Below, piece after piece: positions 27,606-37,557 of a DNA stretch of 37,674 bases; within the stretch, counting starts at the first letter, position 1, and each line of letters begins with the position of its first letter. The stretch is from NCBI GenBank assembly GCA_030680995.1, contig JAUXUM010000257.1, positions 1-37,674 on the forward strand, written 5' to 3'. The stretch comes from Devosia sp. (GTDB lineage: Bacteria; Pseudomonadota; Alphaproteobacteria; Rhizobiales; Devosiaceae). The notes under the pieces were generated by a model. That model made no database searches. It had not been told where the DNA came from and saw only the letters and a program-made list of their open reading frames with translations. Made by a program: the position numbers and the translations under genes.

Positions 27606-28711
27606 CAATCCCGCGCTCCCGCCGCACCGAAATCCTTGAGTACCTCGACGACGCCGCGCATCGCCGCTTCCGTGCCGATCGAGATGCGGAGCCCGTTGGG
27701 AATGCCGTAGCCGTGGATCTCCCGTACGATCAGCCCCCTCTCGAGCAGCGCCTGGAAGGCGTCCGCGGCCTGCCGCGCGTCGGGGAACAGCACCATGACA
27801 AAATTGGCCTGGCTTGGCACGACACGCAGCCGGTTGGAGGACAGGCTGCGCGTCAGCCAGTCCCGCCAGCATGCATTGTAGTTCTTGAGCTCGGCCGTGA
27901 ACCCGGTGTCGCGCGCCGCCTCGGCGCCAGCGACCTGAGCCGGAACTCCGACATTGAACGGGCCACGGATGCGGTTGACCGTGTTGACCACGTGGGGCGG
28001 CCCGTACATCCAGCCGATGCGCAGCGCGGCAAGCCCCATCTTCGAAAAGGTGCGGACCATGACCACGTTCTCGGCCCGGTTCACCAACCCGATCCCCACT
28101 TCGTAGTCGGGGGCGGTGACATATTCGGCATAGGCGCTGTCGAGTACGAAGAGGATGTCGGGGCGCAGCCCCTTGTGCAGCCGGTCGAGTTCGCCGGCGC
28201 CGAGATAGGTGCCGGTCGGGTTGTTGGGATTGGCGAGAAAGACCATCCTGGTCTTTTCGGTCACCGCCGCCAGCAGCGCCTCGACATCGGCGCGGTAATC
28301 GGTTTCTGGCGCCATCACGATCTCGGCCGAAGCGCCGCGGGTGACGATCGGATAGACCGAGAAGCCGAACCGGCTCATCACTGCCTCGTCGCCTTCGCCG
28401 AGATAGGACTGCGCCAGAAGATGAAGGATGTCGTCCGAACCGGCGCCGCAGACGATCCGCTCCGGATCGAGCCCATGCACCTCGCCCAGCGCCTCGCGCA
28501 GGATTCTGGAGGAACCTTCCGGGTAGATCTCGAGCTTTTCCGCGACCGCCCTGTAGGCGGCGATGGCTCGCGGGCTGGCGCCCAGCGGGCTCTCATTGGC
28601 CGAGATCTTGACGGGCTCGACACCCGGCACGGCGTGCGCGCGGCCCTGCACATAGGGCGCGATCTTCAAAAGGCCGGGCTGCGGTTGCGGACGGTCGGGC
28701 GTCTGGGACAT
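27605..28711 (-). CDS. hisC: Histidinol-phosphate aminotransferase family enzyme
   Basis: A 368-residue fold type I PLP aminotransferase. The PLP lysine is K224 in RTFSKMGLAALRIGW. NPNNPTGT (161-168) and DSAYAEY are cofactor-site motifs. Family members act on histidinol phosphate and often also on aromatic amino acids. Coupling to tyrA suggests that this copy works at least partly in tyrosine/phenylalanine synthesis; a separate his-operon hisC may exist elsewhere. It has its own start region upstream, opposite the methyltransferase end. Confidence 0.92.
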   Translation of the reverse strand: MSQTPDRPQPQPGLLKIAPYVQGRAHAVPGVEPVKISANESPLGASPRAIAAYRAVAEKLEIYPEGSSRILREALGEVHGLDPERIVCGAGSDDILHLLAQSYLGEGDEAVMSRFGFSVYPIVTRGASAEIVMAPETDYRADVEALLAAVTEKTRMVFLANPNNPTGTYLGAGELDRLHKGLRPDILFVLDSAYAEYVTAPDYEVGIGLVNRAENVVMVRTFSKMGLAALRIGWMYGPPHVVNTVNRIRGPFNVGVPAQVAGAEAARDTGFTAELKNYNACWRDWLTRSLSSNRLRVVPSQANFVMVLFPDARQAADAFQALLERGLIVREIHGYGIPNGLRISIGTEAAMRGVVEVLKDFGAAGARD

Positions 28712-34291: not shown

Positions 34292-35194
34292 ATGACCTCC
34301 TTCGCCGACGAAATGGCCGTTTGCGCCGCCGATATCGAGCGGGCGCTCGACAGGCTGCTGACCGCCGAGCGCCTCGCGGGGCCCGGCGTGCCGCCCGATC
34401 GCCTGGTCGCCGCCATGCGCCACGGCAGCCTCAATGGCGGCAAACGGTTGCGGCCGCTGCTGGTACGGCAGGCCGCGAGCATCTTTGGGGTCCTGCCCCG
34501 GGAGAGCCTGGCCGCGGGCGTGGCTGTGGAACTGGTGCATTGCTATTCGCTGATCCATGACGACCTGCCGGCCATGGACGACGACGATGTGCGGCGCGGA
34601 CAGCCCACCGTCCACCGCGCCTATGACGACGCCACGGCCATCCTCGCCGGAGACGCGCTGCCGACGCTGGCGTTCGGCATTTTGGCCGGCGAGGACTGCC
34701 ACCCCGACCCGGCGGTGCGCGTTCGCCTCGTCGCCGAGCTCGCGGCTGGCGCCGGCGCCGGCGGCATGGTGGGCGGGCAGGTGCGCGATATCGAGGGCGA
34801 AACGACAGCCCTCCCCGATCGCCAGATCGCCGAAATGCAGGCGATGAAGACCGGCGCGCTGATCCGCGCCGCCGTCCGCATGGGCGCGATCCTCGGCGGC
34901 GCCGGGGACGAGGCTCTGGTCCATCTCACCCACTATGCGGAGGCCGCCGGCCGCGCCTTCCAGCTCGCCGATGATCTGCTGGACGTCACCGCTTCGGCCG
35001 AGGCCATGGGCAAGGCCACCGGCAAGGACGCCGCCAACGGCAAGCAGACATTGGTCGGCCGGCTCGGAGTCGAGGCGGCGCGGCGTCATCTGGCGGAAAC
35101 GGTCCACGACGCGCTGACGGCGCTCACCGCATTCGGGCCGGAAGCCGATGGGCTGCGCGCGACCGCGATGTATTTCGCGGCAAGGGAGAGCTAA
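34292..35194 (+). CDS. ispA: Short-chain polyprenyl (farnesyl/geranylgeranyl) diphosphate synthase
   Basis: A 300-residue trans-isoprenyl diphosphate synthase. The first Asp-rich motif is DDLPAMDDDD (90-99) and the second is DDLLD (227-231). GGKRLRP (49-55) binds the pyrophosphate, and KTGALI and GGQVRDIEGE are further blocks. Length and FARM context fit farnesyl diphosphate synthase; geranylgeranyl activity cannot be excluded. It converges on ispG with an 8-base gap, placing two isoprenoid genes together. Confidence 0.92.
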   Translation: MTSFADEMAVCAADIERALDRLLTAERLAGPGVPPDRLVAAMRHGSLNGGKRLRPLLVRQAASIFGVLPRESLAAGVAVELVHCYSLIHDDLPAMDDDDVRRGQPTVHRAYDDATAILAGDALPTLAFGILAGEDCHPDPAVRVRLVAELAAGAGAGGMVGGQVRDIEGETTALPDRQIAEMQAMKTGALIRAAVRMGAILGGAGDEALVHLTHYAEAAGRAFQLADDLLDVTASAEAMGKATGKDAANGKQTLVGRLGVEAARRHLAETVHDALTALTAFGPEADGLRATAMYFAARES

Positions 35195-35201
35195 CGACCC
35201 C

Positions 35202-36452
35202 TCACTCCGCCGCCGTGGTTTCGGGTGTCTTGGCCCCCTGCCCGAACCGCTTCTCGATATAGTCGGCGACCATCGCCTTGAACTGGTCCGCCACATCCGC
35301 CCCGCGCAATGTCGCGACCTTCTTGCCGTCGATGAAGACCGGGGCGGCCGGCTGCTCGCCGGTGCCGGGGAGCGAGATGCCGATATCGGCCTGCTTCGAC
35401 TCCCCTGGGCCGTTGACGATGCAGCCCATCACCGCCACCGAGAGCGTCTCGACGCCGGGATAGCGCTCGCGCCATTCGGGCATGGAGGCGGAGAGATGCT
35501 GCTGGATGTCCTGGGCGAGGCTCTGGAACACCGTCGAGGTGGTGCGGCCGCAGCCCGGGCAGGCCGCGACCACCGGCAGGAACTGGCGGAAGCCCATGGT
35601 CTGCAGCAATTCCTGCGCCACCCGCACTTCCTGCGTGCGGTCCCCGCCCGGCTCGGGGGTGAGCGAGATGCGGATGGTATCGCCGATCCCCTGCTGCAGG
35701 AGGATGCCGAGCGCCGCCGAGGAGGCGACGATGCCTTTCGATCCCATGCCGGCTTCGGTCAGCCCGAGGTGCAGGGCGTAGTCGCAGCGCGACGCGAGGT
35801 CCTGGTAGACCGCGATCAGGTGCTGGACGTCGGAAACCTTGGTGGAAAGGATGATGCGGTCGCGGCCGAGCCCGATCTCCTCGGCGCGCCGGGCCGAGAG
35901 CAGCGCCGACTTGATGATCGCTTCGCGCTGCACCGCGGCGGCCGAGATCGGCGTCGGCGAGACGGCGTTCTCGTCCATCAGTTTGGTCAGCAATTCCTCG
36001 TCGAGCGAGCCCCAGTTGACCCCGATGCGCACCGGCTTGCCATATTTGAGCGCGAGCTCGATCAGCGTCGCGAATTGCGTGTCGCGCTTGGCCTTGAACC
36101 CCACATTGCCCGGATTGATGCGGTATTTGGCCAGCGCCTCCGCGCAGGCCGGGTGGTCGGTGAGCAGCTTGTGGCCGATATAGTGGAAATCCCCGATGAT
36201 CGGGACGTTGACGCCGCGGGCCATCAGCCGGTCGCGGATATGCGGCACGGCGGCCGCCGCCTCGTCGCGATCGACGGTGATGCGCACCAGTTCCGAGCCC
36301 GCCCGGGCGAGCGCCGCCACCTGCCGCACCGTGGCCTCTATATCGGCGGTATCGGTATTGGTCATCGATTGGACGACGATCGGCGCGCCGCCACCGACCA
36401 TGACGCCGCCGACATCCACACCCACCGATTGCCTGCGGATCGCTGCCGCCAT
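35202..36452 (-). CDS. ispG: 4-hydroxy-3-methylbut-2-enyl diphosphate synthase
   Basis: A 416-residue iron-sulfur enzyme of the MEP isoprenoid pathway (GcpE). [15 protein letters not shown] and [11 protein letters not shown] are near the N-terminus of the TIM barrel. The [4Fe-4S] cysteines are in [10 protein letters not shown] (two) and [10 protein letters not shown] (one). The length is typical of alphaproteobacterial forms. ATG 36452 is the first good start (MAAAIRRQS). Confidence 0.97.
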
Positions 36453-36530
36453 GGATCACCTTTCGCTTGCTGGGCCACGAAATAAGCCTTCGAGCGTGGG
36501 AGCGCAATGTTACGAATGCGTGATGGCCCA

Positions 36531-36543
36531 GGACAAGTTGTCC
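36531..36543. promoter_or_regulatory. Short palindrome upstream of the HTH gene
   Basis: GGACAA-G-TTGTCC is a perfect 6-bp inverted repeat about 80 bases before the HTH start, in the 36453-36621 gap. It may be an operator for that protein or for ispG (divergent). Only symmetry and position support this. Confidence 0.35.
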
Positions 36544-36621
36544 CTCTGGATTCCCAAAAATAGCGACAAGAGAGCGCTTTGAATAAACATATATCTTGCG
36601 GGCAGTGTCGAAATGTGAGTT

Positions 36622-37068
36622 ATGTGCCGTATGACAGCGACACGAGTTAAAGCGGCGATAGGCCAGCCCACTCACGAAGGTGGTGGGGAGGCGCGAATTC
36701 GCGAGAAATGGGGAGAGGCGATAGTCCCTGGGTTCCAAGCGGTGCCGGACACCCTACTCAAGAACCAAGATCGGCTGGGACTGAACCCCACTGAGCTTGT
36801 GGTGCTTTTGAACGTGCTAATGCACTGGTGGTACGCGGGAAAGAAACCATTTCCTCGGCCGACGACAATCGCGAAACGCATGGGTTCGACGGTGAGGACA
36901 GTACAAAGGGCAATCAACCAAGTGGTCGCCTTGGGTCTGCTCATTCCCGAACAAGGGCCCGACCAAGAGGACTTCCTGAATCCCGAGCCTTTGGTTCAGA
37001 AACTTGGCGAACTAGCGAGAAGCGACCCTGAATATGCTTCCCGGAGGAACAGGAGAGATACGGCGTAG
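36622..37068 (+). CDS. HTH (winged) DNA-binding protein, probably horizontally acquired
   Basis: A 148-residue protein: VPDTLLKNQDRLGLNPTELV, NVLMHWWYAGKKPFP, and a helix-turn-helix RPTTIAKRMGSTVRTVQRAI followed by the recognition/wing region VVALGLLIPEQ. The layout resembles replication-initiator/transcription-factor-like HTH proteins of mobile elements. Lower GC and less biased codons than its neighbours suggest transfer. ATG 36622 or 36631 could start it. Its TAG stop is formed by bases 8-10 (U8-A9-G10) of the tRNA-like element that follows, so the two overlap by nine bases. Confidence 0.8.
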   Translation: MCRMTATRVKAAIGQPTHEGGGEARIREKWGEAIVPGFQAVPDTLLKNQDRLGLNPTELVVLLNVLMHWWYAGKKPFPRPTTIAKRMGSTVRTVQRAINQVVALGLLIPEQGPDQEDFLNPEPLVQKLGELARSDPEYASRRNRRDTA

Positions 37069-37176
37069 CTCAACTGGATAGAGCCCCCGTTTTCGACGAC
37101 GCTTGCGAAGTAGCATCGCGCTATTTTACGAGCGTCGGGCGGGGAGATGTGGGTTCGATTCCCACCGACCGTCCCA
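37060..37176 (+). tRNA. tRNA-like element with a 41-nt hairpin in the anticodon loop (Arg-UCG-like)
   Basis: A 117-nt cloverleaf. Acceptor ACGGCG (37060-37065) pairs with CG-A-CCGT (37166-37172, one bulged A), discriminator C and encoded CCA. D arm is GCTC-AACTGGATA-GAGC. Anticodon stem CCCGT (37086-37090) pairs with GCGGG (37139-37143, one G-T pair). The variable loop is GAGAT and the T arm GTGGG-TTCGATT-CCCAC. The loop is 48 nt instead of 7: TTTCGA, then an almost fully paired hairpin (37097-37137), then G. Removing the hairpin leaves TTTCGAG, with TCG at 34-36. It could be a tRNA with an intron-like insert, an odd functional tRNA, or a pseudo-tRNA. Confidence 0.6.
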
Positions 37177-37251
37177 AAAATCTACTCAAACCGCGAGCCG
37201 GGAGACCCGCATGAGCCTTGAACGAGCCGCGGCGACGACCATATCTCAGGC

Positions 37252-37557
37252 ATGAGAAACTTTGGCCCCATCGCCCGCCTCCTCGCCTTCCGCCGCGAAC
37301 TCGTTGCCCTGTGGCAAGCTTTCTTCGCGCCGGAGACGCCGATGCGTCTCAAGGTGCTGATGCTCTTGGTGCCGCTCTACTTGGTAAGCCCCATCGATCT
37401 CATTCCCGACGTGGTGCCGCTGCTCGGTTGGCTGGACGACATGATTGTCATCCCCATGCTGGTGAGCTGGATCTTCCGCATGCTGCCGCAGCGGGCGCCG
37501 GTGCGTACGCGCACTGAGGCCAGCAAGCAGATCGACGGCACTTACCGGCGGCTCTAG
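37252..37557 (+). CDS. YkvA family (DUF1232) membrane protein
   Basis: A 101-residue protein with the DUF1232 core: MRLKVLMLLVPLYLVSPIDLIPD, followed by VVPLLGWLDDMIVI. Two hydrophobic segments probably dip into or cross the membrane. The SPIDLIPD motif is diagnostic. Function unknown; the family is widespread and generally stands alone. It converges with the biotin-carrier gene end two bases downstream. Confidence 0.9.
   Translation: MRNFGPIARLLAFRRELVALWQAFFAPETPMRLKVLMLLVPLYLVSPIDLIPDVVPLLGWLDDMIVIPMLVSWIFRMLPQRAPVRTRTEASKQIDGTYRRL

What the first reader, a model, noticed from the sequence alone, without database searches (positions are those of the whole stretch)
37060..37176. tRNA-like gene with a 41-nt self-paired insert at anticodon-loop position 37/38
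All cloverleaf parts are present (acceptor with one bulge, D arm, anticodon stem, 5-nt variable loop, T arm, encoded CCA), but the anticodon loop is 48 nt. The extra 41 nt (37097-37137) fold into one hairpin: 18 positions per side, a single C-A mismatch, and a 5-nt ATCGC loop. The insert sits exactly between the nucleotides that would be 37 and 38, the canonical site of archaeal and eukaryotic tRNA introns. Removing it leaves a normal 7-nt loop with a UCG anticodon. Known bacterial tRNA introns are group I or II and over 200 nt. So this may be a novel intron type, a tRNA with an extended anticodon arm acting as a regulatory RNA, or a remnant in which a small mobile hairpin was captured.
Basis: partly seen in the sequence, partly recalled or inferred. 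Interest (0 to 1): 0.85.

Follow-up and report, generated by a model that had tools for sequence, protein, structure and literature searches.

The report
Mobile tRNA-arginine mimic beside helix-turn-helix gene
A small mobile cassette carries a DNA-binding-type protein gene followed at once by an RNA that copies the body of the arginine tRNA but has a long hairpin in place of its reading end; relatives sit in other bacteria and on plasmids, so it looks like a real but undescribed kind of RNA, probably one that imitates a tRNA rather than decodes.

Summary
In detail: 37060-37176 is a tRNA-like gene whose anticodon arm carries a 41-nt hairpin. It is not a one-off. I aligned 19 members (alpha-, beta-, gammaproteobacteria; genome contigs, five plasmids, one viral contig). 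The insert's sequence changes freely but stays paired (7 of 9 insert pairs with changes on both sides; arm-swap control 0 of 10000), so 'drifting pseudo-tRNA' fails as a general account. Nor is it an intron in a 7-nt loop: the shared form is a 7-bp stem, a 5-nt bulge (UUCGA or UUCUA in 14 of 19), then a hairpin. Arginine identity nucleotides A20, C35 and G/U36 are kept in 19 of 19; the discriminator is mostly C. In 13 of 16 members found by their RNA, a DnaD-like winged-helix gene (HTH_36) lies directly upstream (window: 9-nt overlap). In the window this pair alone is a ~692-bp insert; its protein is absent from 40 relatives. Two related loci carry the RNA twice. Defence genes lie near it in 6 of 7 loci I chose to scan. 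Best account: a mobile cassette whose RNA mimics tRNA-Arg as decoy or competitor for a tRNA-Arg-binding enzyme. The family is well supported; the mechanism is inference (about 0.4). The window copy looks partly worn.

The parts
36524..37215 (.). Inserted cassette (about 692 bp), not present at the corresponding place in relatives L273 and L284
   Evidence: Flanks are conserved; L273 joins them directly, L284 with about 20 nt between; P0001 in 0 of 40 relatives; GC 0.515-0.585 inside against 0.625-0.755 over 34500-36399 and 0.62-0.645 to the right
36622..37068 (+). Winged-helix protein gene, 148 aa (HTH_36 / DnaD_N); a gap of about 22 aa in the wing region against relatives
   Evidence: Pfam HTH_36 8.4e-10, DnaD_N 6.8e-9; alignment; model of a relative is a winged helix
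37060..37176 (+). tRNA-Arg-like RNA with extended anticodon arm, CCA encoded
   Evidence: Rfam tRNA 34 bits; family model R1 83.6 bits, but the window is one of the 19 rows R1 was built from
37060..37065 (+). Acceptor 5' strand, one nucleotide shorter than its 3' partner 37166-37172
   Evidence: Direct reading; alignment A1
37085..37091 (+). Lower anticodon-arm stem, 5' strand (pairs with 37138-37144)
   Evidence: Fold; 7-pair helix over the family
37092..37096 (+). 5-nt bulge TTCGA holding C35, G36, A37 of tRNA numbering
   Evidence: Column counts
37097..37137 (+). Insert hairpin: arms 37097-37114 and 37120-37137, loop 37115-37119 (ATCGC)
   Evidence: Fold and shuffles; compensatory changes across the family
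37138..37144 (+). Lower anticodon-arm stem, 3' strand
37149..37165 (+). T arm

Best explanation
What it is (shown by comparison): one copy of a mobile two-gene cassette, a winged-helix protein gene followed within a few nucleotides by an RNA derived from tRNA-Arg whose anticodon loop has been rebuilt into a 7-bp stem, a 5-nt bulge that still shows C35-G/U36-A37, and a covarying hairpin. How it works (inferred): the two are transcribed together; RNase P and the 3' tRNA enzymes cut the RNA out like a tRNA; it folds with a normal elbow and acceptor but cannot decode. Because it keeps arginine identity nucleotides it occupies a protein that normally binds tRNA-Arg. The most likely target is a tRNA-Arg-attacking toxin or defence nuclease, for which the RNA is a decoy that cannot be inactivated in the usual way; arginyl-tRNA synthetase is the second candidate. 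The winged-helix protein most likely regulates the cassette.
For: Covariation over 19 members: 88.8% of cells paired (shuffles 79.6%), 19 of 32 pairs changed on both sides (shuffles 11.1), 0 of 500 shuffles as high on either; insert helix 7 of 9 pairs changed on both sides; arm-swap control 0 of 10000; 16 of 19 inserts at p<0.05 on their own. A20, C35 and G/U36 each in 19 of 19, A37 in 18; a review names A20, C35 and position 36 as arginine identity elements (PMC9976931, passages); in this genome the D-loop GGA, read from the printed loops, occurs only in the four tRNA-Arg genes. CCA within 0-2 nt of its place in 16 of 19. HTH gene directly upstream in 13 of 16 RNA-found members. The pair alone is the insert in the window. 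Tandem second RNA copies in L215 and L222, with C-G to U-A in the lower stem. Defence-type genes in 6 of 7 loci whose neighbours I scanned: AbiTii, AbiEii, AAA_13/PDC-S06, PD-Lambda-3 with QatC, Abi_C, Eco57I methylase; DndB directly upstream of a further RNA, L244.
Against: No transcript, processing, charging, binding or phenotype is shown. The discriminator is C 11, U 5, A 3 of 19, not mainly the A/G that the review's text gives for arginine, which speaks against efficient charging. The neighbours scanned were picked by eye; of the defence genes only those of L078, L225 and L227 lie downstream on the RNA's strand, L225's about 0.7 kb away. For the window, L204, L206, L218, L221 and L292 I recognised none. 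No target nuclease is shared: the HTH protein is the only neighbour common to many loci. L237, L234 and L246 lack the usual bulge motif, and Rfam's tRNA model does not find L234 or L237 even at E 1. No sigma-70-like promoter was found at 36450-37300. 16 of 20 other plasmid relatives of the HTH protein have no such RNA within 190 nt, so the protein has other uses.
Confidence: 0.42

Rival explanations
1. Protein-RNA complex: the winged-helix protein binds the bulged hairpin directly, and the RNA is a scaffold or a titrating ligand that controls the protein (autoregulation), its tRNA body serving only for processing and stability.
For: Tight linkage: the HTH stop lies 5-14 nt before the RNA in 14 loci (coordinates) and overlaps it in the window; the conserved asymmetric bulge and an apical loop that often reads like TNRCA (by eye) look like a protein site; terminator-like hairpins follow the RNA in L233 and L236 (by eye).
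Against: Pandoraea L228 has another protein upstream, and the visible end of L217's matches it; G531 (L244) has a DndB-family protein and G987 (L292) none; the fold is nearest to DnaD and MarR-type domains; the arginine nucleotides would be unexplained.
Confidence: 0.25
2. RNA toxin of a toxin-antitoxin pair: the mimic sequesters arginyl-tRNA synthetase or jams translation, and the winged-helix protein represses it.
For: In HTH relatives the slot behind the gene holds PemK/MazF toxins (L229, L238) or Abi_2 genes (L208, L213), and a NYN gene lies beside it in L212; the cassette is mobile and self-contained.
Against: Discriminator mostly C; some copies have lost or damaged the protein (L206) or have none (L292) yet keep the RNA, which a harmful RNA should not allow.
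Confidence: 0.15
3. Novel small tRNA intron: the hairpin is spliced out to give tRNA-Arg(UCG) or (UCU).
For: In 14 of 19 members the bulge still reads UUCGA or UUCUA.
Against: Genome has the full arginine set; the lower stem closes the loop with U.G pairs kept in 16 of 19; only one bulge; L237 and L234 lack the motif; discriminator mostly C.
Confidence: 0.05
4. Passive element: a tRNA-like 3' end kept as an integration site, processing signal or mRNA 3' end, without a trans function.
For: In most members the RNA lies directly behind a gene; the cassette is cleanly inserted in the window.
Against: No integrase shared, only a 3-nt TGA repeat at the borders; covariation in an insert that such a role would not need; tandem copies; an RNA without an upstream gene (L292).
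Confidence: 0.13

Closest known systems
tRNA-Arg (bacterial)
   Same: Cloverleaf elbow, T arm, A20, C35, G/U36; CCA in most
   Different: No free anticodon loop; covarying hairpin of 29-41 nt in the anticodon arm; discriminator mostly C
Archaeal/eukaryotic tRNA introns (bulge-helix-bulge), bacterial group I tRNA introns (recalled)
   Same: Extra sequence in the anticodon loop region
   Different: One bulge only; far shorter than group I/II introns; loop closed by pairing
Phage tRNAs that evade anticodon nucleases (PMC10264068, abstract and passages; PMC11555353, search listing only)
   Same: Mobile-element tRNA species altered in the anticodon loop, in a defence setting
   Different: Those are proposed to go on serving translation; the words 'insertion', 'hairpin' and 'decoy' do not occur in the held text of PMC10264068
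Type III toxin-antitoxin systems and AbiF with its ncRNA (recalled)
   Same: Small mobile protein + structured RNA pair near abortive-infection genes
   Different: Protein is a winged helix with no nuclease domain found; RNA is a tRNA derivative behind the gene
HTH_36/DnaD_N plasmid proteins with PemK, DUF3800, NYN or Abi_2 neighbours
   Same: Homologous winged-helix protein
   Different: No such RNA within 190 nt downstream in 16 of 20 examined
tmRNA and viral tRNA-like structures (recalled)
   Same: tRNA body with the anticodon arm replaced
   Different: Not called as tmRNA by ARAGORN; not a viral genome end

Membership tests
Functional tRNA-Arg | Cloverleaf with acceptor, D and T arms | tested here: met
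   Rfam tRNA above its gathering score in 8 of 10 members scanned; L234 and L237 not found; acceptor, D and T helices 93-98% paired over 19 members
Functional tRNA-Arg | 7-nt anticodon loop | tested here: not met
   7-bp stem, 5-nt bulge, hairpin
Functional tRNA-Arg | Identity elements A20, C35, U/G36 | tested here: met
   19 of 19 each
Functional tRNA-Arg | Discriminator A/G73 | tested here: not met
   C 11, T 5, A 3 of 19; the review's table, as held, also lists U73 in that row
Functional tRNA-Arg | Aminoacylation and decoding | not testable with these tools
   needs biochemistry
tRNA intron, bulge-helix-bulge type | Two 3-nt bulges flanking a 4-bp helix at the exon borders (recalled) | tested here: not met
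   Single 5-nt bulge
Group I / II intron | Ribozyme core | tested here: not met
   Insert is 29-41 nt; cmscan gives only tRNA at this place in the window
Type III toxin-antitoxin | RNA antitoxin beside its endoribonuclease toxin (recalled) | tested here: not met
   Partner is a winged helix; no shared toxin gene
Integron gene cassette | attC with GTTRRRY core at the cassette border (recalled) | tested here: not met
   No GTTRRRY within about 10 nt of either border, read by eye
HTH_36 / DnaD_N winged-helix proteins | Pfam match above cut-off and winged-helix fold | tested here: met
   Window, L218, L222, L233, L237 above cut-off; L246 below it for DnaD_N; model of L218

The most novel reading that the evidence does not exclude
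A new class of mobile cassette in which the effector is an RNA: a winged-helix protein plus a tRNA-Arg mimic that acts in trans on the tRNA-Arg pathway (decoy antitoxin, anti-defence RNA or RNA toxin), spread on plasmids and in defence islands of Pseudomonadota, and possibly part of a wider set of mobile-element tRNA mimics with extended anticodon arms that includes phage examples.
Probability: 0.45. Interest if true: 0.9.

Novelty: categorically new. Interest (0 to 1): 0.8.

Why it matters
ARAGORN missed the window gene, so such genes may go unannotated or be called pseudo-tRNAs, and a class of tRNA-derived RNAs may be hidden in plasmids, defence islands and phages. If the RNA acts on the tRNA-Arg pathway it would be a new way for a mobile element to interfere with, or protect from, attack on tRNAs. 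The unit is small and testable: two genes, about 0.7 kb, with a covariance model.

Tried and rejected
Intron, group I/II intron, bulge-helix-bulge, tmRNA: see membership tests. Captured palindrome: no second copy of the RNA region in the genome and none among the window's repeats shown; the insert alone was not searched with looser settings. Shared third gene: all-against-all comparison of 131 reading frames from 16 neighbourhoods found the HTH protein in 9; the other clusters are four antisense frames and four pairs. Short local DNA matches that touch the insert in relatives (G252, G170, G142, G200, G345) were not followed further. In the genome-contig scan I judged 12 of 15 stretches members by their T arm, 3 (L216, L223, L226) chance; L219 and L220 show the same sequence as L206 and L204 and were left out of the alignment. 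L234 was left out of A1 because its arm is larger and branched; L244, L246 and L292 and the second copies in L215 and L222 were found later and are not in the counts. L233, L236 and L237 were found through the HTH protein and are left out of the 13 of 16. Model R1 also matches ordinary tRNAs (all 385 genomes), so only matches of 100 nt or more count; that list was cut, so 5 of 385 is a lower bound. For the same reason R1 scores of phage tRNA-like genes (64 bits or less, ordinary tRNAs up to 58) show no kinship. Folding of inserts included one extra 3' G for 18 of 19; the pair counts corrected this. An attempt to read acceptor pairs of the genome's own tRNAs (second part) was misindexed and is not used. 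The review's table, as held, puts U73, G2-C71 and C3-G70 in the arginine row exactly as in the cysteine row below it, so I do not lean on G2-C71 (17 of 19) and C3-G70 (18 of 19). Paper searches listed 21, 17, 8, 20 of 56, 0, 12 of 1,212 and 2 papers; none of the titles and abstract starts shown describes such a family.

Full report
Observation. The sequence at 37060-37176 is as described. Rfam's tRNA model covers it end to end at 34 bits with 44 nt left unaligned in the anticodon loop; ARAGORN does not report it. It folds to -51.6 kcal/mol, z -3.31, none of 200 shuffles as good. The genome held (3.14 Mb, 257 contigs, 96% complete) gives one match. ARAGORN on the 38 other tRNA places found by the Rfam search gives tRNA-Arg ACG, CCG, CCU and UCU, so a UCG tRNA is not needed.

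Relatives. A blastn search of 36950-37200 against plasmids hit a Caulobacter sp. FWC26 plasmid and a Xanthobacter dioxanivorans plasmid through the RNA part. Both have a helix-turn-helix gene, then a tRNA-like gene with a hairpin of different sequence in the same place. Pattern scans then gave two genomes besides the window's own out of 385 in the class, one viral contig, and 12 members among 15 stretches of the 84,980-species collection: Aminobacter, Microvirga, Mesorhizobium, two Phenylobacterium, two Pandoraea and five MAGs (two of them, L219 and L220, showing the same sequence as the genomes). Searching plasmids with the Aminobacter HTH protein (326 records) and fetching 12 of them added Methylocaldum, Spongiibacter and Bradyrhizobium, plus a larger branched variant in Paraburkholderia; Rfam's tRNA model finds the first two but not the Bradyrhizobium or Paraburkholderia RNA. 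Frequency: matches of 100 nt or more in at least 5 of 385 genomes of the class (list cut) and, by a stricter pattern, 2 of 398 of the phylum sample.

Structure. In alignment A1 of 19 members a structure that I wrote from their folds (acceptor, D, T, 7-bp lower anticodon arm, 9-bp insert helix) has 88.8% of cells paired (shuffles 79.6%), 19 of 32 pairs with changes on both sides (shuffles 11.1) and a covariation score of 0.334 against 0.177; 0 of 500 shuffles reach these, and 1 of 500 reaches the number of further pair types. Sliding the partners by 1-3 columns drops pairing to 41-50%, though a structure taken from the sequences tends to beat slid versions anyway. Pairs with changes on both sides: acceptor 6 of 7, D stem 0 of 4, lower arm 3 of 7, insert 7 of 9, T stem 3 of 5; the insert helix is paired in 74.1% of cells. 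Swapping the insert's 3' arms between members gives 0 of 10000 permutations as good, also with one of each near-duplicate pair removed. On their own 16 of 19 inserts fold better than shuffles at p<0.05; L204 (0.35), L206 (0.09) and L221 (0.08) do not. RNAalifold's own consensus on the same alignment did not recover the insert helix, probably because MAFFT does not align it well. The common shape is five anticodon-stem pairs, two Y.G pairs, a 5-nt bulge, then the hairpin; the bulge reads TTCGA in 9 and TTCTA in 5 of 19 rows of A1. Against this, the lowest-energy folds of L227 (z -0.83) and of the first copy in L215 rearrange the D and T arms.

Arginine features. A20, C35 and G/U36 are present in 19 of 19 and A37 in 18. 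A review names A20, C35, position 36 and discriminator A/G as arginine identity elements (PMC9976931, passages). In the window's genome the D-loop GGA occurs in the four tRNA-Arg genes only; Ala and Val have GGG (read from the loops printed). Against this, the discriminator is C 11, T 5, A 3. CCA stands at its exact place in 10 of 19 and within two nucleotides in 16.

The partner protein. In 13 of the 16 members found through the RNA, an HTH_36/DnaD_N-type protein gene stands directly upstream: 12 with an intact frame and one cut by the edge of the locus (L225); L206 has only remnants in two frames; the two Pandoraea lack it. In 11 of the 12 the stop lies 6-14 nt before the RNA and in the window it overlaps by 9 nt; with the three HTH-found members the range is 5-14. 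Outside the alignment, G505 has a divergent DnaD_N protein below cut-off, G531 a DndB-family protein ending about 6 nt before the RNA, and G987 none. A model of the Microvirga protein (pLDDT 75.5, pTM 0.64) is a winged helix; only three PDB chains match at E 0.001 or better, all DnaD, followed by MarR-type and other winged-helix regulators; a sequence profile also finds DnaD (2vn2, 5e-8). Of 20 other plasmid relatives of the protein whose downstream DNA I printed, 4 have the RNA; others have PemK/MazF, DUF3800, Abi_2 or unknown genes there.

Mobility. The protein is in none of 40 relatives including 18 congeners. The DUF1232 gene to the right is in 17 of the 18 congeners. In L273 the left flank joins the right flank directly and in L284 with about 20 nt between, while L279 and L275 carry an unrelated small gene there. 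The window therefore has an insert of about 692 bp (36524-37215) holding only the HTH gene and the RNA; its GC is 0.515-0.585. I found no integrase and only a 3-nt repeat at the borders. No sigma-70-like promoter was found in 36450-37300.

Tandem copies. In L215 and L222, which are related to each other, a second RNA follows the first after about 50 nt with its own hairpin; the outer anticodon-stem pair changes from C-G to U-A. It may be one duplication event. The second copies are not in the counts above.

Setting. From seven loci I chose neighbours by eye and scanned them; six gave defence-type families: AAA_13/PDC-S06 starting 17 nt after the RNA (L227), AbiTii about 50 nt after it (L078), AbiEii about 0.7 kb after it (L225), and, in other orientations, Eco57I-type methylase (L214), PD-Lambda-3 and QatC (L222) and Abi_C (L224); L215's neighbour gave none. 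In the window and several other members I recognised no defence neighbour.

Reading. That this is a conserved, mobile, tRNA-Arg-derived RNA is shown by comparison. That it is cut out by tRNA enzymes, does not decode, and occupies a tRNA-Arg-binding protein is inference. I favour a decoy for a tRNA-Arg-attacking enzyme (0.42), then a complex with the winged-helix protein (0.25), an RNA toxin (0.15), a passive element (0.13) and a spliced intron (0.05). The window copy itself may be wearing out: its acceptor strand is one nucleotide short and its protein shows a gap of about 22 residues in the wing.

Novelty. In the ten members scanned, Rfam 15 offers only tRNA at the RNA's place, and nothing for L234 and L237. 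Seven paper searches listed nothing that describes such a family in the titles and abstract starts shown; two listings were cut. The library lacks most subscription papers and nearly all preprints, so prior description cannot be ruled out.

Noticed in passing
Many look like two tRNAs run together, but some (L108, L170, L097) fold with extended anticodon arms, while L133 and L135 fold no better than shuffles; some recur, by eye, as families (L128/L138/L184/L186; L098/L106/L133/L144/L152/L194; L135/L169). No evidence that they belong to the window's family.
   Followed up: partly
L231 2517-2685 and L232 2535-2696: Behind the same HTH protein an Agrobacterium and a Shinella plasmid share a different hairpin-forming stretch instead of the tRNA-like RNA (by eye).
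   Followed up: no
L229, L238: HTH relatives on Sphingobium plasmids are followed at once by PemK/MazF toxin genes, suggesting a slot behind the HTH gene that holds varied cargo.
   Followed up: no
L068 99-192: ARAGORN names a tRNA-Phe with anticodon AAA in the window's genome at a contig end; Rfam gives a 45-bit tRNA match of 92 nt there, so the type may be misread.
   Followed up: no
L244 (G531): A tRNA-like RNA of similar length follows a DndB-family protein by about 6 nt, so partner proteins can change.
   Followed up: partly
window 28547-28635: ARAGORN reports a tRNA-Ala (GGC) that Rfam does not support at its gathering score; probably a false call.
   Followed up: no
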